Below the pieces are notes generated by a model, which worked only from the letters and a program-made list of their open reading frames with translations, had not been told where the DNA came from and made no database searches. 54,078 nucleotides of DNA. Source: Prevotella sp. Its GTDB lineage: Bacteria; Bacteroidota; Bacteroidia; Bacteroidales; Bacteroidaceae. Shown one piece after another: positions 18,276 to 54,078 of this stretch. The position numbers and the translations under genes are program-made. Positions within the stretch are counted from its first letter, which is position 1, and each line of letters opens with the position of its first letter. The stretch is taken from assembly GCA_017645905.1 (NCBI GenBank), contig JAGCNO010000112.1:1-54078 (forward strand), read 5' to 3'.

Positions 18276-21200
18276 ATGGTAACTGCTTTACTTTCAGCTG
18301 CTTTGGTCATCAACGAACTGATGGCCAGTAATGCGGGGATTGTGATGAGCCCTGCTACTAATTTTGATAGTTGGATAGAAGTTTATAATCCCGGCGAAGA
18401 GGCTGTTAATCTTGGCGGCATGTATCTGAGCAACGATGCCCAGAATCTGAAGCTATGGCAGCTCCCTTCGAACATCGGTATGGTGCCGGCAAAGGGTTTC
18501 AAAGTCTTGTGGCTCGGTTCCAACGACATTCTTTCAACCCATGCTCCTTTTAAGCTCGACTGTGATGGCGACACTATCTTCCTGAGTGACCGTCAGGGGG
18601 AACTGGTTGTAAGCCAGGACTATCCTGCCAGCATCAGCCGCTCATCCTACGCACGCACCAGCGACGGAGGCGAGGATTGGGGCTGGACGGCCGATGTCAC
18701 GCCTGGCGAGAGCAACGCCACTTCACACTTTGCCAGCACCTGCCTGAGCGCACCCGAAGTGAGTGTGGGCAGTTGTCTGTTTGATAGGTCGATTGTTGTC
18801 AATGTAGACATTCCCGAAGGTGCCATACTGATGTACACCACCGATGGCAGCCTGCCCGTGAGTACGGTGGAGGGAGAGGGTACGGCCAAGCAAAGCACCA
18901 CGGGAAAGTTCAACGTAAGCAGTACCAAGAGCTACGTGTTCCGACTGTTTAAGGACGGCTATCTGCCGAGTCCTCCCGTGACGCGCAGCTATATCAGGCG
19001 CGACAAGAATTTCACCATCCCCATCATTTCCATTGTGGGCGATGACCGTTACTTCAACGATTCGATGTGGGGCATTGACGTGAAAGGCGAGAACGGTATT
19101 CCAGGCAATGGCCGTGATGATGCCGTGAACTGGAACCAGCCTTGGAATCGTCCTGTGAACTTCAGCTACATCAGCCCCGATGGCAAGATGCTGTTCAATC
19201 AGGACGTGAACATCAGCGTCTCGGGTGGCTGGTCGCGCAAGGATGCTCCCCGCTCCTTCAAGCTGAAAAGCAGTAAGGAGTTCGACGGGCTTAACCATCT
19301 GGACTATCCCTTCTTCCCCCAGAAACCCTATATCCGCAGCAAGGCACTCCTTATACGCAATGGCGGCAACGACTCCTGGTGCCGGTTCAAAGACCCTACG
19401 CTGACAACTATGGTACAGCGCTCCGGTATCGACCTTGACGTGCAGAGCACCGTTCAGGTGGCTGAATACGTCAACGGGAAATTCAAGGGCGTTCTGAACC
19501 TGCGTGAGCCTAACAATGACAAATTTGTCTACGCCAACTGGGGCTATGACGACGAAGAGATTGATGCCTTCGAGAACGACGAGTTCAAGAATGGCACCGC
19601 CGAGGCCTACTATTATCTTATAAGGCGGAGCTCGCACATCAACGATGAAGGTATCTATGATGAAGTGAAGACGCTGCTGGACATCGATGAGTTCACCAAC
19701 TACATGGCTGCAGAGTTGTATTTAGGCAACAGCGACTGGCCCAACAACAATGTCAAGGGCTATCGCAGCAGGAATGACGGCCGCTTCCGCTTCGTGCTCT
19801 TCGACCTCGACCAGGTGTTCAACTATTATTGTCCCATGACCAGCATCTCCACGCTCGAAACGAACCAGGAGTTTGCCAACACTCCCTTGGTGCGCCTGTT
19901 CAAGAACCTCCTCGGCCACGATGAGTATCGCAAGAAGTTTCTCGACACCTTCTGCCTCATGGGTGGCAGCGTGTTTGAGCGTCAGCGTGTCACGTCGATG
20001 GTCAACGAGCTTGCCGACAAGTGGCGCCCCATGCTGCAGCTCGATGGCCGCAATCCCGACAATACTGCCAACGAGATAAAGACCAGGCTGGATTCCCGCT
20101 TGGATGTGGCCTTCAACCAGCTACAGGAGTATAAGCCTGCTCAGACAAAAGGTCTCAAGAAACAAAACGTCCAGCTCAGCGTCGATACCGATGGTGCCAA
20201 GCTGCTGGTCAACGGTTTGAATGTACCCTACGCTTCGTTCAAGGGCTATCTCTTCCCACCCGTGACGCTCGAGGCGAAGGCTCCTGCCGGCTACACTTTT
20301 GCGGGATGGAAGAAGGGCAACACATCGCTCACCACGATAATAAAGTACTCATCCCAATGGCGCTTCTATGACGCTGGCGAGGCACCAAGCGGCTGGCAAA
20401 CCGCCGGCTTCGACGACAGGGGCTGGACTCCGGGTAAGGCACCGCTGGGCTACACCATGAATGGTGTCGTTACCACCGTCAGCTATGGCAATGACAGCCA
20501 GCAGAAGCATCCCACCACCTACTTCCGCCAGAGCATCACCCTTAGCAAGGAACCTGCTGCTGACGACATTTTTGTCTTGAACTATCAGGTGGACGACGGT
20601 TTTGTAGTCTATGTCAACGGGCGGGAAGCCGGACGCGTGAACATGCCCGATGGTACCGTGCGCTATGACACCTTCTCGCAGACATACGCTGGCGACACGC
20701 CGATGGAAGGCGATATTGAGCTGCCCGCCACGCTCTTCCATGCAGGCAGTAATATAGTGGCTGTCGAAGTCCACAACACGAGCTACACCTCGAGCGACCT
20801 CTACTGGGCTGCCTCGTTGCAGACCACTAATAGCGATGCCGAGGTAGAAATAACGTCCACAGACCCCGTTATCAGCCTGCCTGACGATGATAGGCTGTCG
20901 CTTGTGGCAATGTTCCAGCCCATGTCCGACGAAGAACGTGCTGCAGACAATATCGTGCCCGTGCGCATCAACGAGGTGAGTGCTGCCAACGGCATCTACG
21001 TCAACGAGTACTTCAAGCGCAGCGACTGGGTGGAGCTCTACAACACCACCGACCAGCCCGTCGATGTGGAGGGAATGTATCTTTCCGACGACCCCAGCGA
21101 CCCTCAGAAATATCAAATCGAGGCTCCCTTCTTTACGTCCGAAGAGCTTTGGGGATTCACCCCCTACGGCCTGGAGAATCAGGGCTCAACAGTCATACCG

Positions 21201-21647
21201 CCTCACGGCTTCCTTATCGTCTGGTGCGACAGCCGTGAGGCGCTGACACAGCTTCATACCACCTTCAAGATTGCTGCCGACGGTGGAAACGTGCTCCTGA
21301 CGTCAAGCGACGAAACGTGGAGCGACCAGCTTACCTACACGGCAATGAACGAGGTTCAGACCGTAGGACGCTTTCCCGACGGAGCCTCCGATGTCTACCT
21401 GATGGATGTCCCCACCATCAGCAAACCGAATAACACGTCGAGCTATGCTACTATTCCTTCTGTCGCTATCCTCATTGGCGACGTCAACTGTGACGGAGTC
21501 GTCGATGTGGCCGACGTCTCGGCTGTTATCTCCTTCATGGCAGGAGACGACACAGGAGTGGAAGAGGTACGTGCCGATGTGAACGGAGACGGAGCCGTCG
21601 ATGTGGCTGACATCTCGGCCATCATCAGCATCATGGCAGGAGAGTGA
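18276..21647 (+). CDS. Large lamin-tail/CotH-kinase-like surface protein with C-terminal dockerin-like module
   Basis: 1123 residues. In order: lamin tail domain (VINELMASNAG, DSWIEVYNPGEEAVNLGGMY, residues about 10-120), a chitobiase C-type beta domain (ILMYTTDGSLPVS, about 180-240), a CotH kinase-like domain (NISVSGGWSRKDAPRSFKLK, VLNLREPNNDKFV, FVLFDLDQVFNYY, about 250-600), a galactose-binding-like region (about 690-880), a second lamin tail domain (VRINEVSAANGIYVNEYF, about 900-1060), and two dockerin-like loops (DVNCDGVVDVADVSAVISFM and DVNGDGAVDVADISAIISIM). The start is forced by an in-frame stop just upstream; the resulting signal peptide (MVTALLSAALV) is short and lacks positive charge. 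Confidence 0.82.
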   Translation: MVTALLSAALVINELMASNAGIVMSPATNFDSWIEVYNPGEEAVNLGGMYLSNDAQNLKLWQLPSNIGMVPAKGFKVLWLGSNDILSTHAPFKLDCDGDTIFLSDRQGELVVSQDYPASISRSSYARTSDGGEDWGWTADVTPGESNATSHFASTCLSAPEVSVGSCLFDRSIVVNVDIPEGAILMYTTDGSLPVSTVEGEGTAKQSTTGKFNVSSTKSYVFRLFKDGYLPSPPVTRSYIRRDKNFTIPIISIVGDDRYFNDSMWGIDVKGENGIPGNGRDDAVNWNQPWNRPVNFSYISPDGKMLFNQDVNISVSGGWSRKDAPRSFKLKSSKEFDGLNHLDYPFFPQKPYIRSKALLIRNGGNDSWCRFKDPTLTTMVQRSGIDLDVQSTVQVAEYVNGKFKGVLNLREPNNDKFVYANWGYDDEEIDAFENDEFKNGTAEAYYYLIRRSSHINDEGIYDEVKTLLDIDEFTNYMAAELYLGNSDWPNNNVKGYRSRNDGRFRFVLFDLDQVFNYYCPMTSISTLETNQEFANTPLVRLFKNLLGHDEYRKKFLDTFCLMGGSVFERQRVTSMVNELADKWRPMLQLDGRNPDNTANEIKTRLDSRLDVAFNQLQEYKPAQTKGLKKQNVQLSVDTDGAKLLVNGLNVPYASFKGYLFPPVTLEAKAPAGYTFAGWKKGNTSLTTIIKYSSQWRFYDAGEAPSGWQTAGFDDRGWTPGKAPLGYTMNGVVTTVSYGNDSQQKHPTTYFRQSITLSKEPAADDIFVLNYQVDDGFVVYVNGREAGRVNMPDGTVRYDTFSQTYAGDTPMEGDIELPATLFHAGSNIVAVEVHNTSYTSSDLYWAASLQTTNSDAEVEITSTDPVISLPDDDRLSLVAMFQPMSDEERAADNIVPVRINEVSAANGIYVNEYFKRSDWVELYNTTDQPVDVEGMYLSDDPSDPQKYQIEAPFFTSEELWGFTPYGLENQGSTVIPPHGFLIVWCDSREALTQLHTTFKIAADGGNVLLTSSDETWSDQLTYTAMNEVQTVGRFPDGASDVYLMDVPTISKPNNTSSYATIPSVAILIGDVNCDGVVDVADVSAVISFMAGDDTGVEEVRADVNGDGAVDVADISAIISIMAGE

Positions 21648-21830
21648 CCGTTCTTTCTGGCAGAGAAATCCGTTTTGTCTGGTAGAGAGAACGGCTTTTT
21701 CTCTTAGAAAGAACGGCTTTTTCTTGTAAATTCTCGAGAGAATTGACGAGAAAGAACGGCTTATTCTCATAGTAAGAACGGCTTATTCGAATCGTAAAAA
21801 CGTCTTTTTCTCATAGTAAGAACGGCTCAT
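21648..21830. repeat. 22-bp-period array, locus 2 (both orientations)
   Basis: Starts at the base after the CotH-gene stop. Forward cores CCGTT at 21648 and 21670; inverted cores CGG at 21692, 21714, 21757, 21779 and 21823, with a degenerate core near 21801. All steps are 22 except one of 43, where the palindrome AATTCTC-GA-GAGAATT is inserted. Confidence 0.88.
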
Positions 21831-21850
21831 ACTATTTAATAGTAAAAAAA

Positions 21851-21898
21851 CTCTCCGAATCGCTTGGCAGTTCGGATTTTTGTTTGTAACTTTGCACC
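21851..21898 (+). promoter_or_regulatory. Duplicated promoter cassette, copy 1 (toxin-antitoxin operon)
   Basis: A dyad CCGAAtCGC-ttg-GCaGTTCGG, a T run, and TAACTTTG (21887-21894). It matches 22600-22647 at 47 of 48 positions. The dyad overlaps the expected -33 position, so it could act as operator or as upstream terminator. Confidence 0.85.
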
Positions 21899-21918
21899 CG
21901 ACACTTAAGCAAACCTTT

Positions 21919-22167: not shown

Positions 22168-22179
22168 GCTTGCAGATTC

Positions 22180-22521: not shown

Positions 22522-22599
22522 ACCGTTGAACTCAAAAACCAAGATATGCGTTTGCCACCATAGCCTTTAACAGCTATATTTCGCAGTATATCGAAAAAT

Positions 22600-22647
22600 C
22601 TCTCCGAATCGCTTGGCGGTTCGGATTTTTGTTTGTAACTTTGCACC
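22600..22647 (+). promoter_or_regulatory. Duplicated promoter cassette, copy 2 (structured RNA)
   Basis: Same 48-bp cassette as at 21851-21898 with one change in the dyad (CCGAAtCGC-ttg-GCGgTTCGG). The -7 box is TAACTTTG at 22636-22643. No ATG-led gene follows at a normal distance. Confidence 0.85.
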
Positions 22648-22649
22648 GT

Positions 22650-23894: not shown

Positions 23895-25898
23895 ATGTTT
23901 ATGAAAAAACTATTATTATTATTCGTATTACAATTGCTGCCTTTATTAGCAGGTGCGGATGCCATAGAAATTAATGGTATCTATTACAACTTAGTATCGA
24001 AGGTAAAAACGGCTGAAGTGACAAAAAAGCCCAGTGGTTATTATTCAGGTGTTGTCAATATTCCAAAGACGGTTACCTATGGTGGTATAACGTATGATGT
24101 CATCATGATAGGCGATAATGCATTCTTCAATTGCCTAAGCCTAACTTCCGTAACGATTCCAAATAGTGTGACTAGCATAGGAAGCCATGCTTTCGCTGGA
24201 TGCGAAAGTCTGACCTCCGTAACGATTCCCAATAGCGTGACTAGCATAGGAAGCAACGCTTTCCAAAGTTGCACTGGACTTACTTCCTTCACTATTCCCA
24301 ATAGTGTGACGAGCATTGGAAGTCAGGTCTTTTTGAATTGTAGCGGCCTAACTTCTGTAACAATTCCAAACAGCGTGACGGAGATAGGAATGTCTGTTTT
24401 CTGGGGTTGCAGTGGCCTAAACTCCGTAACGATTCCCAACAGTGTGACGAAAATAGGATTCGGCGCTTTCAGGTATTGCAGCGGCCTGACCTCCGTCACG
24501 ATTCTCAACAATGTGACTAGCATAGGAGAGTCTGCTTTCAGAGACTGCAGTGGCTTGACCTCCGTCACGATTCCCAACAGTGTGACGAGCATAGGAGTGT
24601 CTGCATTCAGAGACTGTAGCAGCTTGACCTCCATCACAATCGGAAGTGGAGTGAAGAAAATATATAGTTTTGCTTTTGCCTCATGCAAGGAACTTACTGA
24701 TGTATATTGCCTGGCAGATGAGGTGCCAGCGATGTATGACTATAATTATAATACTGGTTGTACTGATGCATTCCAAGACTCCTACATTGAATACGCTACT
24801 CTTCACGTACCAGCTTCTACTTTGAACGATTATAAAACAACTGAACCTTGGAGTTCTTTTAGGAGTATTGTAAGTCTACCCGGGACTTCCTCATATACTC
24901 TTACCTATATGATTGACGGAGAAATATATAAGACTTACAAATTGTCTGCGGGAAGTACGATTACTCCAGAACCTGAACCTAAGAAGGAAGGTTATACATT
25001 CTCTGGCTGGAGCACGATACCCAAGACTATGCCTGAACATGATGTGACAGTATATGGTTCATTCGTCAAGAATACCAATTATATGCCAGGTGACGTGAAC
25101 AATGATGGGTCGGTAAGTGTGACCGACGTGGGTTGTGCCATTAACTACATTCTGGAACAGGTGCCATCGGTATTTGTGTTCGATGCCGCTGACATGAATG
25201 GCGACAAGAGCGTATCAGTGACCGACGTGGGAATGATTATTAATCTCGTCCTGAGCGAAGGGGTTGGCAGTCGTAAATACGGGAAAACTATGGAAACAAA
25301 CGACCATGATTTCCATAGTATTATTCTTCCCAATGTTTCATTGGCTTCGACAGCCGACAGCAACTTAGAGTTGATGTTGGAGGACAAGGATGCCTTCATC
25401 GGATTCCAGTTTGATGTGGATAATGCAGAGGGTGCGGGCTGGCACGGGGCCTGCCCCTACATCAGTATGCAACTGTCAGATGGCGACGACCATGTGCTGA
25501 CCAGCAGACAGCTGAGCAATGGGAAATGGCGCGTGGTGTGCTACTCTCCTTCAAATAGCACGTTCAGCCCCAACAGTGGAGGCTCCCTGGTGTCTATCAA
25601 CACTGAGCACAACATTTCGCTCAGCAATATACTCCTCACCACTGCAGGGTTTGACGAGCTGCGACTTGCCACCATAGTCAGCACTCCGACTGACATCGCC
25701 AGTGTAGAGCAGGGCGTGAAGATTAATGCTGAAGGTGGAATCCTCCGTATCATTTCCGACCGTAATATCACCCTGCGGCTATACTCCCTTGGAGGAAGTG
25801 CTTATAGAATACTCCAAGTGAAAAAGGGCATGAACAGCTTTGAAGGTCTGCGTGCCGGTATATATATGATTAATAACAAAAAAGTAATACTGCGATGA
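23895..25898 (+). CDS. BspA-like leucine-rich repeat protein with dockerin-like module and T9SS-type tail
   Basis: 667 residues; the start could also be ATG 23901 (MKKLLLLFVLQLLPLLAGADA, a good signal peptide). About eight near-identical 23-residue LRR_5 repeats follow (SLTSVTIPNSVTSIGSHAF, residues 70-260), then a MucBP/InlB-like repeat (YKLSAGSTITPEPEPKKEG), two dockerin-like loops (DVNNDGSVSVTDVGCAINYI, DMNGDKSVSVTDVGMIINLV, about 397-455), a possible cohesin-like sandwich (about 475-610) and a C-terminal tail (LRLYSLGGSAYRI, GLRAGIYMINNKKVIL) resembling the type A sorting domain of the type 9 secretion system. The last codons overlap the next gene (ATGA). Confidence 0.85.
   Translation: MFMKKLLLLFVLQLLPLLAGADAIEINGIYYNLVSKVKTAEVTKKPSGYYSGVVNIPKTVTYGGITYDVIMIGDNAFFNCLSLTSVTIPNSVTSIGSHAFAGCESLTSVTIPNSVTSIGSNAFQSCTGLTSFTIPNSVTSIGSQVFLNCSGLTSVTIPNSVTEIGMSVFWGCSGLNSVTIPNSVTKIGFGAFRYCSGLTSVTILNNVTSIGESAFRDCSGLTSVTIPNSVTSIGVSAFRDCSSLTSITIGSGVKKIYSFAFASCKELTDVYCLADEVPAMYDYNYNTGCTDAFQDSYIEYATLHVPASTLNDYKTTEPWSSFRSIVSLPGTSSYTLTYMIDGEIYKTYKLSAGSTITPEPEPKKEGYTFSGWSTIPKTMPEHDVTVYGSFVKNTNYMPGDVNNDGSVSVTDVGCAINYILEQVPSVFVFDAADMNGDKSVSVTDVGMIINLVLSEGVGSRKYGKTMETNDHDFHSIILPNVSLASTADSNLELMLEDKDAFIGFQFDVDNAEGAGWHGACPYISMQLSDGDDHVLTSRQLSNGKWRVVCYSPSNSTFSPNSGGSLVSINTEHNISLSNILLTTAGFDELRLATIVSTPTDIASVEQGVKINAEGGILRIISDRNITLRLYSLGGSAYRILQVKKGMNSFEGLRAGIYMINNKKVILR
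24120..24640 (+). repeat. 69-bp coding repeats of the LRR region
   Basis: The unit around TCCGTAACGATTCCCAATAG plus TGTGACGAGCATAGGA recurs every 69 bases, about eight times. DNA identity is high at synonymous sites, which points to recent duplication or conversion. Confidence 0.85.
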
Positions 25899-28234
25899 AA
25901 AAGAATCGTTTTCTTGTAATAGCATTAATCCTGATTCCTCTACTGTCGTCGGCAGAAGAGCGTAGCGAGCAGCAGATGCAACAGGCAGCCCTGCGTGTGT
26001 TGAATTCTGTTGGAACACATGGCAACAGGGTTGCGCGCCAATCGTCAGCCTTGAAGTTGAAGATGAAAAAGCCAAAGCTGTCCGTCTATGGCTATGAATG
26101 CGGTGGCTTTGCCGTCGTTACAAGCGACGACCGTTACAATGATGTGATAGGCTATTCTGATACGGAATACAACGACACTGTCATGCCTTGTGGTTTCAAG
26201 TGGTGGATAGAGACAGCTAATGCTACGATGGAGCAGACGGACAATCAGGAAATGACCTATTCAAGCATAAAAAAAACAAAAGCCAGCGTGACGCCTTTCC
26301 TCGCTACCAAGTGGGGGCAGGGTAATCCGTTTAACGCACTGCTTTATTGCACCATTGGAAGCAATTCATACCAGTTTGTCACAGGGTGTGTTGCTACAGC
26401 TATGGCCCAAGTAATGAAGTACTATGAGTATCCCGAGAAGGGTACGGGGTCGGTGTCGTATGTAGTCCCGAATTACTTGGCAAGGATGGAACACACCTTT
26501 GGCGATTATTACGACTGGAGCAATATGCTCGATGTTTACAACTATCAGGAATGGGGAAGCATGAGCGCAGCAACTAAGGCTGTAGCGACGCTGATGCGTG
26601 ACTGCGGCATGGCTGTGGAGATGAACTATGGCACTGAGTCGAGTGGTGCAACTTCTTCCACCATAGCACCTGCCCTGAAAAACTATTTCTCCTATGGTGA
26701 TAAGACCGCCTTGTATAAACGCTCGAATTATAGCAAGACCAGATGGATGGAGCTGATTTATGAAGAATTGAGCAACAACAGGCCCATTATTTACCTAGGT
26801 GTTGACAAGAGTGACGAGGAGAATACTTCGGGTCATGCCTTTGTGCTTCACGGATATAATTCTTCTGGTGCTGTTTATGTAAACTGGGGATGGAAGGGGG
26901 CCTGTGACGGTTATTACGATATAGACCTGCTCAATCCTGAAACTTACCAATACAGTGAAGGTCAGGAGATGGTGCTTGTAGAGCCTGTTACTGTGTCGCC
27001 AGTTCCTACCGACAATAAGATGAACGTTCAAGGAGTAGCAGTCGCTCCCGGCGAGAGTGTGTCCCTGTGTGTCGAACTGGAAAATGAAGCCACTAATCTG
27101 ATGGGCTGGCAGTGCGATATCGTGCTGCCAGAAGGTCTGTCATTGGAACTTAAGCCTAATGGAAAGCCCACCGTAACGCTTGGCGAGCGTTTTGCAACTA
27201 CTGGACACACCATCTCATCAAGCCGACTGGCCAATGGAGCTTACCGCTTCGTCGCCACGTCGATGGATGGAGAAACTATTCCTGGAAGTAAGGGAATGTT
27301 ATTCACCGTTACTTTGAAAGCAAATAGCGAGATAAATACTGGGACATCACTGATGGGAGATGTGACAAACATTGAATTCAATACGCTGGATAACCAAAAA
27401 AAGTCATTCGATGACATTACCTTTAGCATCAAGATCCCTGCTAATGGCGACAATTCAGCAAATGATGTGTTAAAGGTGCAAGATGTAAGTCTAGCTCCCG
27501 GAGAGATTATGGAACTTAATATAGAACTGGATAATAAGACTACGAACCTGATGGGGTGGCAGTGCGACATAGTGTTACCAGCAGGTCTCTCGTTGGCATT
27601 GAAAGCCAACGGAAAGCCCGCTGCGACACTTGGTAGCCGTTTCTCAACAACAGAACACTCCATCTCGTCTAGTCGACTGGCCAACGGAGCATACCGCTTT
27701 ATTGCTACGTCGATAGATGGCGAAGCAATTCCTGGCAACAGTGGACCTCTGTTCAAGGTGACATTGCAAGCCGATGATTCTGTCACACCTGGCGCTAATC
27801 TAACAGGCAAAGTAACAAACGTTGAGTTCAACAAGCAGGACAATCAGAAGCTGACGTTCGACGACGTGACGTTCTTGGTTACAATTCCTGGCAGTGTGGA
27901 AAAGAAATGCGCCACACCAACCATTACCTTTAATAATGGTAAGCTGAAGTTTACCTGTGAGACAGTGGGCGTGAAGTATTTCTACGAGGTCACTAATGCT
28001 GACGTAAAAAAAGGCAATACGAGCGAGGTGGCTATAAATGGCAAGTATAAAGTCTTTGTCTATGCAACGAAAGAAGGCTACGAAGACAGCGATATGGCCA
28101 CGATGGAGTTCACCCTTGGCAGCAACGGCAATGTATGTGACGTAAACAATGATGGCACAGTAGATGTGGCTGATATCGCTTCCATCATTGACGAGATGGC
28201 AGCAAATGCAAGGAGAATGAAGAGTGGGGACTGA
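25895..28234 (+). CDS. C10 (streptopain-type) cysteine protease with two cohesin-like repeats and a dockerin-like module
   Basis: 779 residues. Signal peptide (RFLVIALILIPLLSSAEE), propeptide, then the C10 catalytic domain with nucleophile C165 in VTGCVATAMAQVMKYY, H314 in SGHAFVLHGY and the NWGWKG motif. Two tandem about 150-residue sandwich repeats follow (VAPGESVSLCVELENE, NLMGWQCDIVLPEGLSLEL and their second copies, residues about 375-660) that resemble cohesin-type modules, then a short Ig-like linker and one dockerin-like loop (DVNNDGTVDVADIASIIDEM) at the C-terminus. It is secreted; substrates are unknown. The gene is translationally coupled (ATGA) to the BspA-like gene. Confidence 0.88.
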   Translation: MKKNRFLVIALILIPLLSSAEERSEQQMQQAALRVLNSVGTHGNRVARQSSALKLKMKKPKLSVYGYECGGFAVVTSDDRYNDVIGYSDTEYNDTVMPCGFKWWIETANATMEQTDNQEMTYSSIKKTKASVTPFLATKWGQGNPFNALLYCTIGSNSYQFVTGCVATAMAQVMKYYEYPEKGTGSVSYVVPNYLARMEHTFGDYYDWSNMLDVYNYQEWGSMSAATKAVATLMRDCGMAVEMNYGTESSGATSSTIAPALKNYFSYGDKTALYKRSNYSKTRWMELIYEELSNNRPIIYLGVDKSDEENTSGHAFVLHGYNSSGAVYVNWGWKGACDGYYDIDLLNPETYQYSEGQEMVLVEPVTVSPVPTDNKMNVQGVAVAPGESVSLCVELENEATNLMGWQCDIVLPEGLSLELKPNGKPTVTLGERFATTGHTISSSRLANGAYRFVATSMDGETIPGSKGMLFTVTLKANSEINTGTSLMGDVTNIEFNTLDNQKKSFDDITFSIKIPANGDNSANDVLKVQDVSLAPGEIMELNIELDNKTTNLMGWQCDIVLPAGLSLALKANGKPAATLGSRFSTTEHSISSSRLANGAYRFIATSIDGEAIPGNSGPLFKVTLQADDSVTPGANLTGKVTNVEFNKQDNQKLTFDDVTFLVTIPGSVEKKCATPTITFNNGKLKFTCETVGVKYFYEVTNADVKKGNTSEVAINGKYKVFVYATKEGYEDSDMATMEFTLGSNGNVCDVNNDGTVDVADIASIIDEMAANARRMKSGD

Positions 28235-34828: not shown

Positions 34829-37678
34829 TCATGTTTCGGCCATCAGGGATATCACCTTGGCTATGTCGGCCACGTCGACAGCTCCGTCTCCGTTTACGTC
34901 GGCATTGCCCGATGCTGACGCATCGGGAACGGTGGCCATAACGTCGATGATGGCAGCTATGTCGGCCACATCGACGGTGCCGTCGCCATTCACATCGCCG
35001 TCCTTCGTCTTTTGTAAGGGGATGAGCCGAAAGGGAAAAGCGGTAAGCTGGGCGTTTGTGGTGAGTAGGGTTCCGTCGTTATCGACTGTCCAGTATTTGT
35101 TTGTTGCCGATGATGTTCCGGAGTGAATGGCATAGCGGTCGGTACCTACAGCGGAGTCAAGGTAGAAAGAGTAATAGAGGCTGCCGAACAGCCTTGTCGT
35201 AGTGCCCAGGCCCAGGCTGTCGGGCAGGCTGATAAGGGCGCAGCGCGTGCCGTTGGTGTCGATGAACCACGTCTGCCCTTCGCCGGGAACTGGGGACTGC
35301 AAATCCCCTCCAGCCATGAGGCCTTCCTCGAAGGTGACGGGCTGACTCTTCCCGTGACCGGTGAGCAAGCGTCCGTTCTCGGCCTCTTGAATGAGATAAT
35401 CGCCTGGCTGGATGATAGTTGCGGCAGCTTTGACATAGATGTTGAAGGTGAAAGCGTAGTCTGTGCCGCCAAGGTTAAAGGTTGCTGTGTATTGGCCGCT
35501 GGTCTGCAGGTTTTCCAGGGTGAGCGTCTTGCCGTGATAGTCAGCTAAGTCGGCGGAGCCTTTGCCGTCACTCCACGACACCTTCGAGGCGGTGATGATA
35601 GTGGGTGTGGTCAGGCCGAGCGTCACGCTGGCGCCCTGTTCCACTATGATGTCCGTGCCTTCGGTGGTCTTTTCGCCAATGGCGTAATAGGGCGAGGCCA
35701 TGATGACATGGATGTGGAACGACTGGGTGGTGACGGCTCCTCCCTGGTTGGTGAAGGTGACGCTGATGTCTCGGTCTTCCTTGATGTTAGTGATGTTGAT
35801 ATTCTCTGTGGTGGCTCCGGTGGTCCATTTGTAGGTGCCCCATCCCACGGTGGGCTTTACGCTGAGGGTGGCCGTCTTGCCATAGAGTACCGAAATCTCA
35901 GAGGTGGCTTCATATACCGTACCGTCGTAGGTGATGCTTGGCGTGAGTCCGTCGGGTGTGCAGTCGCCTTTCGCGGCGATGGGGAAGCATAACTGACTCT
36001 GGATGCCGTTCCGGTTGGTGTAGGTGACGCGGTAGACGAAGCTCTTGTCGGTGGTGACGGTGATGTCGCGCGTCGTCTCGCCTGTGTTCCAGAGCCAGTG
36101 GCCCGTGTCCTCTTCGCCGTCGGGCAGCTGCGGCATGAGCTTCAGCGTCTGTCCAGAGGGCGGGCACGTGTTGTTGTTAATGGCGAAGGTGTTGACGAGG
36201 CCTCCCAGTTCGTTGTGCAGGAGGGTCTGGCCGTTGACCATTCCGCGGGCTTTCTCTTTGGCAAGACTGGGGATGAGGCTGGCCGTGAGCGCCTGACTGT
36301 ATTCCATCTTCGGCGACAGTTCTGTGGGAACCTTGTCGGCAGGACAGAGCTGTTCGTCGCGGGTGTTCATCAGCACGCTGTAGCCCATGTGGTCGTAGCT
36401 TCCGCTGGTGCTGCCCAGAGCGCCCTCGTCGATGCCCATCTGGGTATAAGATATTTCGGAGAAAGGCATTCTAACGCCCTTCACCCCCTCGTAGATGCCG
36501 ATGACGGTGCCCCAGTAGGGACGCGTCTGTGCGCCGAGAGCAGGGCCGGTCATCAGCCAGGCACGCCCGTCGCTGTAGAAATAGCCGTTGCTTCCGTACA
36601 TATAGTTAGTCCACGGAAGCCCTTCCAAGCTCTGGGTCTGTGCCGCCACAAACTCGATGCCAGAGGCCAGCCGATGGTCCAGATAGGCGAAGAGGTCGTC
36701 GCCCTGGTTCCAGCCCATCTTTGCCAAATCGATGGCCAGTCCCAGCGCCATAGCTGAATGGCCCGTGTCTCGTCCGCTCTCGTTCATCTGCCCCAGACGT
36801 CCGTAGGCAGCTTTCTCCAGAGGGCTCTCCACGTCGGTCACCACGAGGTTGCCGAGAAACTCCGTCAGTCCGTCGTTGTGGATGCACAGGGTGCCGTCGG
36901 TTTCGCCATGGCCCGTCACCTCGTGCATCGTCGGGGGATTGGTGAAGTTGCCCACTTGGTCATACTTGAAGAACGACAGCCCTTGGTTGTAGATGAACAC
37001 GTCGTCGCAGAGCACACCGATGCTGACGAGGCAGAGCGCGTTGCACAGCCCCCAGTTGCTCCAGTAGTGTCCCGGGGCCTGCCACCACTTGCCGTTGTTC
37101 TCCCACGTACCGTTACGCCCACGCAGAAACCCCAGGCTGGAGGGATACCACACGGTGAGCATCCACTCCTGGAAGGTCTTAAAGTCCTCGCGGCTCCAGC
37201 CCTCGTAGTCGCGCATCAGTTCGGCAGCCTGGGCAAACTGGTAGCCATAGAGTCCTGCGGCCAGGGCGTAGTTAGTGTCGCCGCCAATGGCTTTTGTCGT
37301 CCTGGCCCAGGCCATGAGTATGCGTACGGCGGCCTTGGCACATTGGGCGTTATCCTCAATCTTCCATCGCAAAGCGTTTTGATAGGCCATGGCAGCCCCT
37401 CGGGCGGCGTTCATGTAGTTCTCGCCGCTTCCGCCTCCGCGAACGATGGTCTCCACGGGGTTAGTCTGGACTGATGGCTGGGCGTAGGCTGCGGCCTTCA
37501 GCTTGGCGTAGGCCTGCACAACTTTCTCGTTCCCGTTGGCCAGCTGAGCCTTAACACGCTCGAAGTCGGCCTGGGTATGCAGTCCGCCGGGGTGGATAAA
37601 GCCACGGTCGACAGGCTGTGATGAAAGGGAAAGCGAAATACTCAGGAAGCAGAATGCGATAGTGAGGAAACGTTTCAT
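34829..37678 (-). CDS. Alginate-lyase-superfamily secreted enzyme with dockerin-like module
   Basis: 949 residues. Signal peptide (RFLTIAFCFLSISLSLSSQ), then an alpha-helical toroid of the alginate lyase type (about 25-420; HPGGLHTQADFERVKAQLAN, GHYWSNWGLCNALCLVSIG, MNESGRDTGHSAMALGLAID). The middle (about 430-790) holds Ig-like beta repeats (WLWNTGETTRDITV, YKWTTGATTENINIT). A beta-trefoil-like or ricin-like stretch and two dockerin-like loops (DVNGDGTVDVADIAAIIDVM, DVNGDGAVDVADIAKVISLM) end the protein. The substrate is a uronic polysaccharide by family analogy only. It is a single gene with its own promoter. Confidence 0.8.
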   Translation of the reverse strand: MKRFLTIAFCFLSISLSLSSQPVDRGFIHPGGLHTQADFERVKAQLANGNEKVVQAYAKLKAAAYAQPSVQTNPVETIVRGGGSGENYMNAARGAAMAYQNALRWKIEDNAQCAKAAVRILMAWARTTKAIGGDTNYALAAGLYGYQFAQAAELMRDYEGWSREDFKTFQEWMLTVWYPSSLGFLRGRNGTWENNGKWWQAPGHYWSNWGLCNALCLVSIGVLCDDVFIYNQGLSFFKYDQVGNFTNPPTMHEVTGHGETDGTLCIHNDGLTEFLGNLVVTDVESPLEKAAYGRLGQMNESGRDTGHSAMALGLAIDLAKMGWNQGDDLFAYLDHRLASGIEFVAAQTQSLEGLPWTNYMYGSNGYFYSDGRAWLMTGPALGAQTRPYWGTVIGIYEGVKGVRMPFSEISYTQMGIDEGALGSTSGSYDHMGYSVLMNTRDEQLCPADKVPTELSPKMEYSQALTASLIPSLAKEKARGMVNGQTLLHNELGGLVNTFAINNNTCPPSGQTLKLMPQLPDGEEDTGHWLWNTGETTRDITVTTDKSFVYRVTYTNRNGIQSQLCFPIAAKGDCTPDGLTPSITYDGTVYEATSEISVLYGKTATLSVKPTVGWGTYKWTTGATTENINITNIKEDRDISVTFTNQGGAVTTQSFHIHVIMASPYYAIGEKTTEGTDIIVEQGASVTLGLTTPTIITASKVSWSDGKGSADLADYHGKTLTLENLQTSGQYTATFNLGGTDYAFTFNIYVKAAATIIQPGDYLIQEAENGRLLTGHGKSQPVTFEEGLMAGGDLQSPVPGEGQTWFIDTNGTRCALISLPDSLGLGTTTRLFGSLYYSFYLDSAVGTDRYAIHSGTSSATNKYWTVDNDGTLLTTNAQLTAFPFRLIPLQKTKDGDVNGDGTVDVADIAAIIDVMATVPDASASGNADVNGDGAVDVADIAKVISLMAET
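35292..35308. repeat. REP-like palindrome inside the alginate-lyase-like gene
   Basis: GGGGACT-GCA-AATCCCC, 7-bp arms with one mismatch, in frame; encodes GDLQSP in the sense strand. Confidence 0.6.
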
Positions 37679-43847: not shown

Positions 43848-44783
43848 TTATTCCCCCGGGTGGTAGTCCTCCACGAGGTAGATAGGCCGGCGTTTTGACT
43901 CGTTGAAAACACGTCCGAGGTACTCGCCAATGATGCCGAGGCAGATGAGCTGCACGGCACCGAGGAAGAGCATGACGCAGATGAGTGTGGGGTATCCGGC
44001 CACGGGGTCGCCGTAGATGATGGCCTTGACTAAGGTATAGAAAAGGTAGACAAAGGCTCCGGCACCCGTGATAAATCCCAGAAGTGTGGCCAGCCGTAGC
44101 GGGGCTGTGGTAAAGCTGGTGATGCCCTCGATGGCGAAGCCCGTGAGCTGAAGAAGACTCCAATGGCTCTCCCCGAAGCGCCGCTCCTCCTGATTGAAGA
44201 GTATTTCTTTCTTGCGGAAACCTATCCAGCAGAACAGTCCCTTGGTGTAGCGCTCACTCTCACGTAGCTGGCGAAGGGCGTTGATGCACTTGCGGTCCAG
44301 CAGACGGAAGTCACCCACGTTCTGAAGCATCTCGAAGCGGGTGGAACGGGCCAATATGCGGTAGAAGAGCATAGTCAGACGGCGGCGCAGCCATCCTTCC
44401 TTGCCTCGGGTGCGACGGCGGGCATATACATCCTCGTAACCCTGCTCCCACCATTGCAACATCTCGGCGATGACGTGGGGAGGATGCTGCAGGTCGGCAT
44501 CGATGACTACGGCGCAATCGCCTGTAGCATGGTCGAAGCCGGCAAGCATGGCTGCCTCCTTGCCAAAATTGCGCGACAGATTGACGAAGGCCACGCGGCG
44601 GTCTATTTCTGCCAGCGAGGCGATGATGGCCTGGGTGGAGTCCGTGCTTCCGTCGTTGACGAACAGCAGTTCCAGGTCGTAGGCCGGCAGACTGTCGGCT
44701 AACTGGCAGAGGCTCTCATAGAGCTTCTGCAACGATGCCTCCTCGTTGTAGGCAGGGACGATGATGCTAATTCTCTTCTTCAT
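43848..44783 (-). CDS. GtrB/DPM-like family 2 glycosyltransferase
   Basis: 311 residues. GT2 domain with IIVPAYNEEASL, FVNDGSTDST, DADLQHPP (metal site) and FRLLDRKCINALRQL; two C-terminal membrane segments (LATLLGFITGAGAFVYLFYT, LICVMLFLGAVQLICLGIIG) anchor it. Such enzymes load a sugar onto bactoprenol phosphate, the partner job of GtrA flippases, and a GtrA domain is encoded two genes upstream. The start overlaps the phosphatase gene by 17 bases. Confidence 0.9.
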   Translation of the reverse strand: MKKRISIIVPAYNEEASLQKLYESLCQLADSLPAYDLELLFVNDGSTDSTQAIIASLAEIDRRVAFVNLSRNFGKEAAMLAGFDHATGDCAVVIDADLQHPPHVIAEMLQWWEQGYEDVYARRRTRGKEGWLRRRLTMLFYRILARSTRFEMLQNVGDFRLLDRKCINALRQLRESERYTKGLFCWIGFRKKEILFNQEERRFGESHWSLLQLTGFAIEGITSFTTAPLRLATLLGFITGAGAFVYLFYTLVKAIIYGDPVAGYPTLICVMLFLGAVQLICLGIIGEYLGRVFNESKRRPIYLVEDYHPGE

Positions 44784-46098
44784 AGGGTGTGACCTCTTGA
44801 TATTCTGTCTTGTCTCTTATCTTCCTGGCAGTAGTGGCCATGACGTCGATGACAGAGCCGATGTCGGCCACGTCGACCGCGCCGTCGAGGTTGACGTCGG
44901 CATTACGGGCTGACACGGGGTCTGCCCCTACACCGGTCATTACATCGATGATACAGCCGATGTCGGCCACGTCGACCGCGCCGTCGAGGTTGACGTCGGC
45001 GTCGGCGTCGGTGAGGTCGTATTCCTCCAGCATCATCCTGCGGAAATAGTCCACGTTAGCTTGAGCTACGTTGCAGGAGTCTACTAAGAAAGAGTTGAAC
45101 TTCTCCTGCTGGGTATCACCTTCGAGTGTCATGATGTAATTGTACAACGTGTCGATGATTTCCTTCTTGTTGTAGCTGTTGTAGAAGTAGGTCAGTTCGT
45201 AGTCCTTTATCATGTTTTCGTAGTCCACTCCCAACAGTCCTTCCAGCAACAAGGAGAAGTAGCCCGTCCGGTCGGCACCTGAGACACAATGGAAATAGAC
45301 ATTGCGCTCTTTGACGAAATTCTGTATGATAAAGTCAAACTCTCTCTTCCACTTCAGTTTGTATGTTTTGTTTTGGAGATGATCCGGGATCTGTCCGCTG
45401 TTTCTGGTGTAATAATATGGCGGATAGGATGAATTTCCCCACATGTTGGACTTGAATCCGAAGGCCGACTCACCATTACCGACATTGTAAGTGGCACGCA
45501 TGTCTATCTCGGCCTGTATCTCCAGGTCTTCAGTCAGGATGGCCAGACTGGCAGAGTCTACGCTGTGATTTCCGTTCAGCTCGCTGCCCCGGAACAGCTT
45601 TCCGTATTTTATGCGCCTTCCGTCCGTCGTAGGCCATCCTCCCAGGTCGCGGATGTTATTAGCCCCAGGCACGTAAATCATGCGCACCTGGCCCTTGGTG
45701 TGTATCTTGCCGCTGGCCACGCACTCACCGTCAGCCTCAATCATGTAGTAGTAGACGCGCTGGGGTATGAGGTTGTAGAGCTCATATTCATTGGTGCCTT
45801 TGGCAATGACCTTGGTGTGCACGCCCTCGCTGAAGTCGGCATTCTCGGCGTAAGTGAGCAGCAGCGAATCGGCATCGTTGTCGGGGATGGCGATGACTGC
45901 AGGCTGCGGGATGTCGCGTCGCTCGGGAGGTGCCACGTTGTAGGCCGCTACCTGGCTGGAGTCCTCGCTCGAGGTGTAGGTCACCTCTTGCAGGAAACGC
46001 GTCACGGCATCGTTCTCAACGTTCACTGTGATGATGTTGCCGATCTGCGCTGAGGCGCATAGCGCAAAGGCAAATAACACGGGAAAGAATTGCTTCAT
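44767..46098 (-). CDS. Secreted tyrosine-phosphatase-like protein with dockerin-like modules
   Basis: 443 residues. Signal peptide (QFFPVLFAFALCASAQ), a fibronectin-like N-domain (about 25-130), then a Y_phosphatase3-type domain with NNIRDLGGWPTTDGRRIKYG, LFRGSEL and the P-loop HCVSGADRTG (C271, D274, R275). Two dockerin-like loops follow (DVNLDGAVDVADIGCIIDVM, DVNLDGAVDVADIGSVIDVM) and a short charged tail that overlaps the GT2 start. Its substrate is unknown; between a GtrA fusion and a GT2, phosphate on lipid carriers, sugars or proteins are possible. Confidence 0.87.
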   Translation of the reverse strand: MKQFFPVLFAFALCASAQIGNIITVNVENDAVTRFLQEVTYTSSEDSSQVAAYNVAPPERRDIPQPAVIAIPDNDADSLLLTYAENADFSEGVHTKVIAKGTNEYELYNLIPQRVYYYMIEADGECVASGKIHTKGQVRMIYVPGANNIRDLGGWPTTDGRRIKYGKLFRGSELNGNHSVDSASLAILTEDLEIQAEIDMRATYNVGNGESAFGFKSNMWGNSSYPPYYYTRNSGQIPDHLQNKTYKLKWKREFDFIIQNFVKERNVYFHCVSGADRTGYFSLLLEGLLGVDYENMIKDYELTYFYNSYNKKEIIDTLYNYIMTLEGDTQQEKFNSFLVDSCNVAQANVDYFRRMMLEEYDLTDADADVNLDGAVDVADIGCIIDVMTGVGADPVSARNADVNLDGAVDVADIGSVIDVMATTARKIRDKTEYQEVTPYEEEN

Positions 46099-50284: not shown

Positions 50285-50291
50285 AACTAAT

Positions 50292-50519
50292 ATCGTTCCC
50301 ATGACGGCACGTAACCACTTGACGCTGAAAGCTTCATCGCTCAGTAACATCGTTCCCATGACGACCCGTAACCACTTGACGCTGAAAGCGTCATCGCTGA
50401 GTAACATCGTTCCCATGACGACCCGTAACCACTTGACGCTGAAAGCGTCATCGCTCAGTAACATCGTTCCCATGACGACCCGTAACCACTTGACGCTGAA
50501 AGCTTCATCGCTCAGTAAC
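50292..50519. repeat. 57-bp tandem repeat, four units, each with a GAA-loop hairpin
   Basis: ATCGTTCCCATGACG starts at 50292, 50349, 50406 and 50463. Each unit carries TGACGCT-GAA-AGCGTCA; units 1 and 4 have one stem mismatch (AGCTTCA). The length is 19 codons, so shadow frames stay open. Confidence 0.93.
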
Positions 50520-50694
50520 CGTAGGTCGTTTCGACCTGCGGAGAGCAGGGTGTACGGGGTGTGCACTCTGAAAGAGTGCCCCATCACCTGTCTGGGCGAC
50601 CCCGTTAGGGTCGGTCTGCGTTGACAGCTCTATCCGCAGGTCCGTCAGACGCTGCGGTTATGGAGCGACGACACTTTCAGCGTCTATTCGTGTC
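50519..50694. repeat. Cluster of different perfect hairpins after the 57-bp array
   Basis: CCGTAGGTCG-TTT-CGACCTGCGG (50519-50541, one G-U), GCACTCT-GAA-AGAGTGC (50563-50579), CGACCC-CGTTA-GGGTCG (50597-50613) and distant arms GACGCTG/CAGCGTC (50648-50654, 50688-50694). With the array it fills the 449-bp gap 50285-50733. No promoter box is clear. Confidence 0.8.
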
Positions 50695-50733
50695 ATTCTA
50701 TTATTATACGTATTTCCTATTAATACTACATTC

Positions 50734-53700: not shown

Positions 53701-54078
53701 CTGTACTACCGAGCCAAAAGCAGCAACGGACAGACAGCAACGTCCATCGGTAGCGCGGCCATCATGGTGAAATCGCAATATGGTGCTGACGGCGAGGCTA
53801 CGATGGCCTCCTACAGCGTCATCGTTGACGATGAGCTGGTGAGCTATGGTCCGTTGGCTGCCAGGCAGGAAGTGACGTTCTCCTACGCGCTTGACACTAA
53901 GGATTTGACCCCCGGAGTTCATAAATTGAAGACTACTTTCTGGAACTCCTTCGGCCTGAGCGTTACGGAGCAGGTACCCTTCAAGGTGGTGGAAGGCATT
54001 CATGGCGACGTGAACTGTGACGGTGGCGTAGACGTGGCCGACATCGCGACCATCATTGATGTGATGGCAGGCAATGCA
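50734..54078 (+). CDS. M6-family metalloprotease with tandem repeats and dockerin-like module (3' end outside window)
   Basis: Open from ATG 50734 to the window end, 1115 codons. Signal peptide (KRHILFILTLLLAVPLSIYS), an M6 peptidase domain with zinc site ICHEFSHCLGLPD (H310, E311, H314), the MGYWDLMSKG Met-turn-like segment, then from about residue 650 tandem 70-75-residue beta modules beginning EYWFD/DYWLD (DNA starts near 52698, 52905, 53121, 53346, 53571). The last visible part is a dockerin-like loop (DVNCDGGVDVADIATIIDVM). Relatives digest host or matrix proteins. The window ends before the stop. Confidence 0.88.
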   Translation, partial: MKRHILFILTLLLAVPLSIYSVPAKPGVKKTLTLPDGTKVVAELVGDEFGSYWRGTDGKAYSLLPGKDVYKVVDAKQIMQFSKERRTLANKESSMRRLARQNMRKVSSSITGQKKSLIILVNFKDVKFQESNNKELYEKITNKVGFSEGPFKGSVHDYFYDQSLGASERFELSFDVVGPYTLSKEMAYYGEQYEIDKKKIDDRHPGEMVTEAIKLAEADKSANVNFADYVWNSGNKEVELVFVIYAGTNQAEYGGENTIWPHKSSLSNEKKFRNDGSGALTIDGVTIDTYACSSELNGDGNIAGIGTICHEFSHCLGLPDTYDTEYNGGQGMGYWDLMSKGNYNGDGYQPAGYTSFERWFIGWKEPVELSSDRSVNGMNPLQESGESYVIYNSGHANEFFLLENRQKTGWDASLPGKGLLITHVDYDKNAWDRNDINVVPTHQRQTWIPADNVYNSIVNEENKISHTFDGMATDTYPYDDNDFFNRYSKPAASLYNANIYGERFLESSVENITQNYDGTMSFDYHESADYLKVTSYGFEEWDLIEGCFHGTTLKGSVTLQNNSDINVKKTIKVWLIDLDGFDNSMIMRYYPINIDIPPHEIIEYEFQFMNLIEEHTYYVSIYDNNGELVKSELMLCKDDVDIDETIEGNENLASFEYWFDDNSDTRVEVMLNNNRATVKESIYPDFLDDGVHRLNFRVKRNDGMYSSVSSSSFLKLPREQESRVDYWLDDDLDNKQTLEIENTEDEQLLTLDFSDNAKFSYGFHKLNMKMTLKGSLSGTVISQGLMKLPTGFANELEYWFDNDIAHAQRLTGKRAETGEAGFIYVNELDLSALPVGIHTLNMRAVSPSGLIKSSVFSYPVMKLPMGQATQVEYWFDNDIANPQRLNGKRAEAGEPGFIYVNELDLSALPIGIHTLNFRAVSPSGTIKSSIISQPVMKLPMSQVGQLEYWFDGDIAHSHTLSGSGDAMSLTGCLFTGDLDLTGITPGHHRLYYRAKSSNGQTATSIGSAAIMVKSQYGADGEATMASYSVIVDDELVSYGPLAARQEVTFSYALDTKDLTPGVHKLKTTFWNSFGLSVTEQVPFKVVEGIHGDVNCDGGVDVADIATIIDVMAGNA
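53121..53570 (+). repeat. 225-bp coding repeats in the M6 protease gene
   Basis: GGAATACTGGTTCGAC starts at 53121, 53346 and 53571, exactly 225 bases apart; the first two units are nearly identical in DNA, the upstream ones (52698, 52905) more diverged. Confidence 0.88.

What the first reader, a model, noticed from the sequence alone, without database searches (positions are those of the whole stretch)
18276..54078. Six unrelated secreted proteins with dockerin-like modules, one or two also carrying cohesin-like modules
DVNGDGxVDVADI-type loops occur in the CotH protein, BspA-like protein, C10 protease, alginate-lyase-like protein, secreted phosphatase and M6 protease. The C10 protease also has two tandem sandwich repeats (APGESVSLCVELENE, GWQCDIVLPEGLSLEL) that resemble cohesins, and the BspA-like protein has a weaker one after its dockerin loop. 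In cellulosomes cohesin binds dockerin; here the set is mainly proteases, LRR and phosphatase proteins, so a non-cellulosomal surface complex or a sorting/maturation signal is possible.
Basis: partly seen in the sequence, partly recalled or inferred. Interest (0 to 1): 0.75.

Follow-up and report, generated by a model that had tools for sequence, protein, structure and literature searches.

The report
Surface docking system in rumen Prevotella
A gut bacterium related to Prevotella appears to fit about a hundred secreted proteins with the same calcium-loop plug (dockerin) and to make a few cell-surface sockets (cohesins) for them, which would be a cellulosome-like assembly built on an unrelated secretion system in a group where the role of such plugs was unclear.

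Summary
Five of six window proteins carry two dockerin loops (the M6 second loop lies past the contig end); the C10 protease carries one. The C10 sandwich repeats are cohesins by Pfam, AlphaFold2 and Foldseek; the BspA-like protein has a third. The window is a corner of a genome-wide system: about 98 dockerin proteins, nine cohesin modules in six genes. In this genome four cohesin genes end in a T9SS-type tail (anchors) and two in a dockerin (adaptors). Dockerin-only proteins mostly have Sec signal peptides and no such tail. Fifteen of 101 dockerins are N-terminal or internal, so they are not simply a sorting signal. Across 150 genus genomes cohesin and dockerin occur together in 69, neither in 69, one alone in 12. 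Recognition positions 10-11 are nearly uniform within most genomes examined and differ between them. Best reading: a T9SS-anchored, cellulosome-like surface complex of mixed function. Binding, the cognate cohesin and the outer-membrane route are not shown. T9SS anchoring of a scaffoldin was inferred before in Cloacimonadota, and a Bacteroidetes bin with both modules has been listed: a new variant of a known kind.

The parts
21477..21647 (+). C-terminal dockerin (two loops, code VA/VA) of the CotH/LTD protein 18276-21647
   Evidence: (E 9.1e-10), translation
23895..25898 (+). BspA-like LRR protein, proposed anchor: LRR - Flg_new - dockerin - cohesin - T9SS-type C-terminal domain
   Evidence: LRR_5, Flg_new, Dockerin_1; cohesin and C-terminal domain
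25086..25253 (+). Internal dockerin of the BspA-like protein, code VT/VT (VSVTDV), unlike the other five
   Evidence: E 4.1e-12; near-identical in L166/L325 (one record), L328 and L341
25314..25721 (+). Cohesin of the BspA-like protein
   Evidence: E 1.6e-39; query included it; AF2; 2w1n, 2jh2, 2vo8
25719..25898 (+). T9SS-type C-terminal domain of the BspA-like protein (...LRAGIYMINNKKVILR)
   Evidence: seven predicted strands, residues 216-274 of the model; weak Foldseek match to gingipain RgpB C-terminal domain 5ag8_A, rank 16, E 1.3e-3; not hit by TIGR04183 or by A6
25895..28234 (+). C10 (streptopain-like) protease with two cohesins, an Ig-like domain and a single-loop dockerin; proposed adaptor scaffoldin; start codon overlaps the BspA-like stop codon by 4 bases
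27014..27436 (+). Cohesin 1 of C10
   Evidence: (E 2.2e-7, 32.3 bits)
27467..27886 (+). Cohesin 2 of C10
   Evidence: (E 4.0e-5, 25.0 bits); 79% identical to the L166 adaptor cohesin
28139..28234 (+). Single-loop (half) dockerin at the C10 C-terminus, code VA
   Evidence: also single-loop in the L166 adaptor; low-confidence in AF2 (pLDDT 51-65)
34829..34999 (-). C-terminal dockerin of the alginate-lyase-like protein 34829-37678
   Evidence: (E 1.7e-10); PDB match to a C. thermocellum cellulosome GH9 chain 4fl4_A, E 9.3e-6
44767..45000 (-). C-terminal dockerin (VA/VA) of the secreted tyrosine-phosphatase-like protein 44767-46098
   Evidence: 24.4 bits; 19.5 bits, below cut-off
54007..54078 (+). 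First dockerin loop of the M6 protease 50734-54078, cut by the contig end; second loop on the contig of L038
   Evidence: 141-base exact overlap

Best explanation
The dockerins and cohesins are the two halves of a cell-surface assembly system. About 98 mostly Sec-secreted proteins (pectin lyases, proteases, nucleases, lectin-like, LRR and CotH proteins) carry a dockerin with one shared recognition code. A handful of cohesin proteins carry a T9SS-type C-terminal tail that would attach them to the cell surface. A second kind, with cohesins plus a dockerin, acts as an adaptor between enzymes and anchors. In the window the BspA-like gene is such an anchor and the overlapping C10 gene such an adaptor, here fused to a protease. 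Steps shown by computation: the module identities, the domain layouts, near-exclusion of dockerin and T9SS-type tail, genome co-occurrence, and species-specific codes in most genomes looked at. Steps inferred: that cohesin binds dockerin in trans, that the tail anchors the cohesins on the surface, which cohesin takes which dockerin, and how dockerin proteins cross the outer membrane.
For: Cohesins confirmed by Pfam, AF2 and Foldseek. Own genome: 103 dockerin matches, nine cohesin matches, T9SS translocon SprA at 2536 bits. Two single-cohesin proteins with signal peptide and T9SS-type tail (C70). Tails: 80 at E<=1e-3 in the genome, the best 30 all followed by a stop codon within 4 codons; one lies inside a dockerin ORF, and that ORF also carries cohesins. 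Named loci: tail in 21 of 49 cohesin ORFs and 0 of 54 dockerin-only ORFs (the loci were drawn with a query holding dockerin, cohesin and tail, which favours the 21). Co-occurrence in the genus: both 69, dockerin only 3, cohesin only 9, neither 69 of 150; all 20 genomes with ten or more dockerins have cohesin. Family: both 46, dockerin only 20, cohesin only 2, neither 53 of 121; 47 of 48 cohesin genomes and 12 of 12 dockerin-rich genomes have SprA. Positions 10-11, called well-established specificity determinants in PMC8063739 (passages): VA in both loops in 84 of 86 own two-loop dockerins; identity 0.81 within and 0.27 between nine genomes (up to 10 dockerins each), 0 of 300 permutations as large. 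An anchor gene with a coh-dockerin gene behind it recurs in eight named loci by my reading.
Against: No binding data. In a number of low-dockerin genomes the listed places put dockerin and cohesin in the same ORF or locus (seen by eye, not counted), which explains part of the co-occurrence, and no correction for ancestry was made. G115 has 28 dockerins and no cohesin found with model A2. In the family sample 19 further genomes have one or two dockerin matches and no cohesin. The T9SS-type tails of the cohesin proteins are not hit by TIGR04183 or any Pfam family and rest on model A6, which I built from 14 tails of cohesin proteins. In G068 and G183 the codes are mixed and the two loops mostly differ; G121 has two codes. 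Nine cohesins for about 98 dockerins is few.
Confidence: 0.68

Rival explanations
1. The dockerin is a sorting or maturation tag read by a secretion or processing machine, not a cohesin ligand; it replaces the T9SS tail on a second cargo class.
For: 82 of 101 dockerins are C-terminal. Dockerin and T9SS-type tail almost exclude each other (1 of 80 tails in a dockerin ORF; 0 of 54 in named loci). The two classes are of similar size.
Against: 5 of 101 lie directly after the signal peptide and 10 inside the protein. Both loops repeat the same residues at the cohesin-contact positions in most genomes looked at, and the residues change from species to species, which a tag for a conserved machine does not predict. 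Dockerins follow cohesins across genomes.
Confidence: 0.08
2. Cohesin and dockerin pair within one protein or between the two products of one locus, as a folding or polymerising device for adhesins; the about 98 dockerin proteins use their calcium loops for stability or for some other ligand.
For: coh-doc in one chain is a recurrent layout (29 of 49 cohesin ORFs in named loci also hold a two-loop dockerin; the query held both modules, which favours this). The anchor dockerin (VSVTDV) is near-identical in four genomes.
Against: Does not explain one uniform code on more than 80 largely unrelated proteins, nor the two single-cohesin proteins that carry no dockerin.
Confidence: 0.14
3. A true cellulosome for plant fibre: cohesin scaffolds collecting cellulases.
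For: Many named relatives come from ruminant-gut records (red deer, sheep, goat, water buffalo); dockerins sit on rhamnogalacturonan lyases (RGL11_C in 5 of 98), pectate lyases (2), CBM26 proteins (2), GH2, GH53 and Cthe_2159 (1 each).
Against: LRR, CotH, protease and nuclease proteins carry the same dockerin, as does the window phosphatase. No GH5, GH9 or GH48 is among the 50 family rows shown (58 further families not shown). Pfam reported no CBM in the six own cohesin proteins, only a below-cut-off NPCBM_assoc match over a cohesin.
Confidence: 0.1

Closest known systems
Cellulosome of clostridia and Ruminococcus (type I cohesin-dockerin)
   Same: Two-loop dockerins with like residues at positions 10-11 of both loops; cohesin fold; many dockerin enzymes and few scaffolds; adaptor proteins with both modules (cellulosome side recalled, except positions 10-11).
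   Different: Gram-negative host; T9SS-type tail in place of SLH or sortase anchor; mixed cargo (proteases, nucleases, LRR, CotH); no CBM found on the cohesin proteins scanned; binding untested.
Ca. Stygibacter (Cloacimonadota) cellulosome-like complex, PMC8542988 (section 7 read)
   Same: Inferred attachment of a cohesin scaffoldin by a conserved C-terminal domain (a T9SS review is cited there), collecting C-terminal-dockerin hydrolases and peptidases.
   Different: There one 3,755-aa scaffoldin with CBMs and four named kinds of enzyme; here small mono- and oligo-cohesin proteins, anchor-adaptor gene pairs, a protease-scaffoldin fusion and about 98 dockerin proteins.
Dockerins and cohesins reported in rumen Bacteroidetes (PMC6071333 passages; PMC7480376 passages)
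   Same: Same phylum and habitat. PMC6071333 lists Bacteroidetes bins 49 and 58 with 11 dockerins and no cohesin, and names bin 136 both among dockerin-rich Bacteroidetes bins and among bins with two to four tandem cohesins.
   Different: No anchor, tail, code or gene-pair analysis in the passages seen; PMC7480376 says of dockerins in rumen Bacteroidetes PULs that the role in this context is not defined yet. Here divergent cohesins are found that Pfam misses: the C70 pair has no Pfam hit at E<=1.
Non-cellulosomal cohesin modules of Clostridium perfringens glycoside hydrolases (PDB 2w1n, 2jh2, 2vo8)
   Same: Closest cohesin folds to the BspA-like cohesin; modules on secreted hydrolases.
   Different: There the cohesin sits on hydrolases (2w1n from GH84C, 2vo8 from a GH33; the dockerin side is recalled); no T9SS and no genome-wide code known to me.

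Membership tests
Type I dockerin (PF00404) | Profile match over the curated cut-off | tested here: met
   Genome-wide 103 matches at E<=1e-3, all but five rows marked over the cut-off; in the window three proteins over cut-off, three not (half, truncated or weak)
Type I dockerin (PF00404) | Two F-hand loop repeats | tested here: met
   91 of 101 ORFs have two loops, 9 one, 1 none by the pattern used (the one with none, BspA-like, shows two when read); C10 has one and so fails
Type I dockerin (PF00404) | Symmetric recognition residues at positions 10-11 | tested here: met
   Loops identical at 10-11 in 85 of 86 own two-loop dockerins (positions left free in the pattern)
Type I dockerin (PF00404) | Calcium-dependent binding to a cohesin | not testable with these tools
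   No complex prediction or binding assay available
Cohesin (PF00963) | Profile match over cut-off | tested here: met
   Met by C10 (45.7 bits) and the three-cohesin protein of L001 (26.5); not met by the L001 coh-doc protein (18.5), the BspA-like protein and the C70 pair
Cohesin (PF00963) | Cohesin fold | tested here: met
   C10: AF2 pLDDT mostly 85-97 and best PDB match 3l8q cohesin dyad; BspA-like: 2w1n, 2jh2; C70 and C23 proteins not modelled
T9SS cargo | T9SS in the genome | tested here: met
   SprA, 2536 bits; other components not searched
T9SS cargo | C-terminal domain recognised by the curated model | tested here: not met
   TIGR04183 does not hit the cohesin proteins; only model A6 and a weak fold match to the RgpB C-terminal domain support it
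Cellulosome | Non-catalytic scaffoldin with several cohesins | tested here: inconclusive
   Largest own scaffoldin has three cohesins (L001); C10 has two but is fused to a protease
Cellulosome | Dockerin-bearing cellulases | tested here: inconclusive
   None in the 50 family rows shown; 58 families not shown
Sorting signal (T9SS tail, PEP-CTERM kind) | Always at the C-terminus | tested here: not met
   15 of 101 are N-terminal or internal

The most novel reading that the evidence does not exclude
The small cohesin-plus-T9SS-tail proteins are general export adaptors: dockerin proteins dock to them in the periplasm and the folded complexes leave together through the T9SS pore, so that one tail serves about a hundred cargo proteins. 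The species-specific code at positions 10-11 keeps the system private. The conserved VSVTDV dockerin of the anchor and the cohesins of its operon partner form a second, species-independent tier that holds the scaffold together.
Probability: 0.22. Interest if true: 0.88.

Novelty: new variant of a known kind. Interest (0 to 1): 0.7.

Why it matters
Dockerins have been counted in rumen Bacteroidetes without a settled role: PMC7480376 says that in PULs the role is not defined yet (passage), and PMC5831590 says of its genome that, consistent with other Bacteroidetes genomes, no cohesins or dockerins were identified (passage). This work gives candidate partners, a recognition code per species and a layout rule (T9SS-type tail on the socket, none on the plug), which makes the question testable with a few purified modules. 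If right, it would be a way for a Gram-negative gut bacterium to put many enzymes on its surface without giving each its own export tail, and a source of orthogonal cohesin-dockerin pairs.

Tried and rejected
Sorting-signal reading: disfavoured because 15 of 101 dockerins are N-terminal or internal. Lipoprotein anchoring of dockerin proteins: 81 of 89 readable N-termini look like Sec signal peptides, 2 hit a loose lipobox pattern, 6 neither; 12 of 101 could not be read (crude heuristic). PDB search with the C10 cohesins alone found nothing at E<=1. The profile A1 hit only scaffoldins, and weakly (best 5n5p, E 0.0055). Whether dockerin and cohesin pack together in the AF2 models could not be read, as coordinates are not given; pTM 0.65 and 0.53 give no support. 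Matching codes to one cohesin family by covariation was not decidable: C10-type cohesins are 63-79% identical to those of three relatives (L166/L325, L328, L341) while enzyme codes vary. Most C-terminal 'single-loop' hits show a second loop upstream when read; C10 does not. Two ORFs (L070, L074) matched the loop pattern inside what look like TonB-receptor proteins (name recalled) and were dropped before counts. Three more ORFs (L050 34 aa, L047 102 aa, L038 end of M6) were left out of the Pfam census, which used 98 of 103. In one search one dockerin (L286) was dropped and only own ORFs with exactly two loops were used (86 of 101). One search stopped with an error after printing its rows and was redone. 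One search read minus-strand tails in the wrong orientation and was redone.
Full report
What is in the window. Six secreted proteins carry dockerin loops. Four have a C-terminal dockerin of the form DVNxDGxVDVAD[IV]: CotH/LTD, alginate-lyase-like, phosphatase and M6. M6 is cut by the contig end, and its second loop lies on the end of another contig that overlaps the window by 141 identical bases. C10 ends in a single loop; no second one is seen in the three forward frames to about 170 bases past the stop. The BspA-like protein has an internal two-loop dockerin with different residues (VSVTDV), then a cohesin, then a C-terminal domain. C10 has two tandem cohesins, an Ig-like stretch and the half-dockerin. 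The BspA-like stop and C10 start overlap by four bases (ATGA), so the two genes are probably co-translated.

Are the sandwich repeats cohesins? Yes. Pfam PF00963 matches C10 over its cut-off. An AlphaFold2 model of C10 residues 372-779 (55 rows, all window or the search for related loci sequences) has pLDDT mostly 85-97 over the two repeats but 44-74 over the rest. Its four best PDB matches are chains of 3l8q, a type II cohesin dyad from an Acetivibrio adaptor scaffoldin; adhesin, integrin and further cohesin matches follow, as expected for sandwich folds. The BspA-like region (275 aa, 18 rows) gives dockerin blocks of pLDDT 82-93 and a sandwich whose best matches are C. perfringens cohesin modules 2w1n and 2jh2. 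Its last 60 residues form seven strands, and one match in the list is the C-terminal domain of gingipain RgpB (5ag8_A, rank 16, E 1.3e-3), a known T9SS signal (recalled). Sequence-only PDB searches were weak: profile A1 hit three scaffoldin entries, best E 0.0055, and C10 alone hit none.

The genome. G000 (3.40 Mb, 181 contigs, 87.5% complete, 5.6% contaminated) has 103 Dockerin_1 matches at E<=1e-3. I fetched stretches around them and found 103 distinct ORFs with the loop pattern; two were dropped as chance matches. Of 98 scanned with Pfam, 91 hit Dockerin_1. The rest of these proteins are diverse: LRR_5 10, rhamnogalacturonan lyase RGL11_C 5, CotH 4, peptidase M6 4, Laminin_G_3 4, RGI_lyase 3, and C10, pectate lyase, endonuclease I and CBM26 2 each, plus GH2, GH53, Cthe_2159 and others. 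These are floors, as only 25 of 57 and 25 of 51 families are shown. Cohesins are few: the strict Pfam search finds 3, my profiles find 9 matches in six genes. These are C10 (2), BspA-like (1), a two-gene locus on contig C23 (3 and 1) and two tandem 234-235 aa proteins on C70 that are signal peptide, cohesin and a T9SS-type tail and nothing else.

Tail on the socket, none on the plug. The short tail (Y-N-L-x-G ... KG-x-x-I-x-x-GKK) was modelled as A6 from 14 cohesin proteins. It occurs 80 times in the genome at E<=1e-3, and the best 30 all run into a stop codon. TIGR04183 itself finds 7 places; one overlaps an A6 hit (C62) and one lies next to an A6 hit in the same frame (C86). Only one of the 80 tails lies in a dockerin ORF, the three-cohesin protein of C23. 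In 80 named loci, 21 of 49 cohesin ORFs and 0 of 54 dockerin-only ORFs carry the tail, p 1e-8. These loci were drawn with a query that contains dockerin, cohesin and tail, so the 21 and the p-value are inflated; the 0 of 54 is not helped by that. Of the other 28 cohesin ORFs some end in a dockerin and some in other tail-like ends. T9SS is present in G000 (SprA).

Not a plain sorting signal. Of 101 dockerin ORFs, 82 have it C-terminal, 5 straight after the signal peptide, 10 internal, and 4 are cut by the stretch. N-termini look like Sec signal peptides in 81 of 89 readable cases, plus 2 that hit a loose lipobox pattern.

Co-occurrence. In 121 genomes of the family: dockerin and cohesin 46, dockerin only 20, cohesin only 2, neither 53. 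SprA is in 85; 47 of 48 cohesin genomes and 12 of 12 dockerin-rich genomes have it; within the 85, both 45, dockerin only 7, cohesin only 2, neither 31. In 150 genomes of the genus with a better cohesin model: both 69, dockerin only 3 (one match each), cohesin only 9, neither 69; all 20 genomes with ten or more dockerins have cohesin, rank correlation 0.88. These tests ignore ancestry, at most 48 or 40 dockerin candidates per genome were scored, thresholds differ between the two families, and proteins carrying both modules contribute. In the family sample G115 has 28 dockerins and no cohesin found.

A code. PMC8063739 (passages) calls positions 10 and 11 of each dockerin repeat well-established specificity determinants. 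In G000 these are V-A in both loops in 84 of 86 two-loop dockerins. Eight other dockerin-rich genomes, 9 or 10 dockerins each, give IA (G110, 10 of 10), GT (G229, 9 of 9), VA (G192, 9 of 10), VS (G030, 8 of 9), TA (G096, 7 of 10), MA or MS (G121, 5 and 4 of 10) and mixed sets (G068, G183). Identity at these positions is 0.81 within and 0.27 between genomes, against 0.63 and 0.43 at other loop positions, and 0 of 300 label shuffles reach it (G000 entered with 10 drawn at random). The dockerins sampled from the other genomes were the best-scoring ones, which may favour uniformity.

Anchor and adaptor pair. In eight named loci (L166, L168, L171, L173, L174, L175, L190, L244) I read an anchor gene ending in coh-doc-coh or doc-coh and a tail-like end, followed by a short secreted gene of one to three cohesins and a dockerin loop or pair; the query favours such loci. 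L166 (uncultured Prevotella sp., red deer) has the BspA-like counterpart followed by a 286-aa cohesin, Ig-like, half-dockerin protein with no protease, whose cohesin is 70-79% identical to the C10 cohesins. L325 (G192) appears to be the same record, with equal contig length and ORFs, and is not counted apart. So the window C10 gene looks like this adaptor fused to a protease, and the single-loop dockerin is shared with L166 rather than decayed here alone. The adaptor dockerin has the enzyme code of its genome in G000 and G192; in G160 the first loops agree (VA), with only two other G160 proteins seen. The anchor dockerin (VSVTDVGCAINYILEQ) is near-identical in G000, G192, G160 and G145. This suggests two tiers; which cohesin binds which dockerin is open.

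How it works, and how sure. Most likely a T9SS-anchored cohesin-dockerin surface complex with mixed hydrolytic and adhesive cargo (0.68). Shown by computation: modules, layouts, co-occurrence, code. Inferred: trans binding, surface anchoring, route across the outer membrane.

What is known. The listings of my searches and the passages read do not describe such a T9SS-tailed cohesin system in Prevotella, but the library holds open-licence papers only, no bioRxiv, and most listed papers were not opened. Two precedents limit novelty. Ca. Stygibacter (PMC8542988, section 7) already has an inferred scaffoldin held by a conserved C-terminal domain. PMC6071333 (passages) names Bacteroidetes bin 136 both among dockerin-rich bins and among bins with two to four tandem cohesins. 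On rereading I lowered interest from 0.72 to 0.70 for the second. Hence 'new variant', not 'categorically new'. PMC8542988 also cites a 'planctosome' complex, seen here only through that citation and a listing.

Noticed in passing
L001 (C23:107000-114500), L326, L339: A second scaffoldin locus in the own genome, secreted coh-doc (263 aa) next to coh-coh-doc-coh-tail (594 aa); counterparts of 290 and 711 aa in L326 (best cohesin matches 47-67% identical), and a related pair in L339.
   Followed up: partly
L012, L013, L060, L065, L068, L069, L071-L073, L075: A family of proteins with an internal or N-terminal dockerin followed by a repeated IDLGLPSGTKWA-type domain, with the dockerin in the middle instead of the end.
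   Followed up: no
window 18276 and L029: The two CotH/LTD dockerin proteins start right at their lamin-tail domain with no clear signal peptide from the first ATG; the start codon may lie elsewhere.
   Followed up: no
G115 (family sample): 28 dockerins but no cohesin found with model A2 in an 81% complete genome: either a missed divergent cohesin, an assembly gap or a true orphan set.
   Followed up: no
L050 34-aa ORF and L047 102-aa ORF: Dockerin ORFs with little or nothing in front, perhaps gene fragments or frame breaks.
   Followed up: no
G068, G183: Dockerin-rich genomes in which positions 10-11 are not uniform and the two loops mostly differ, which suggests several dockerin specificities in one species.
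   Followed up: no
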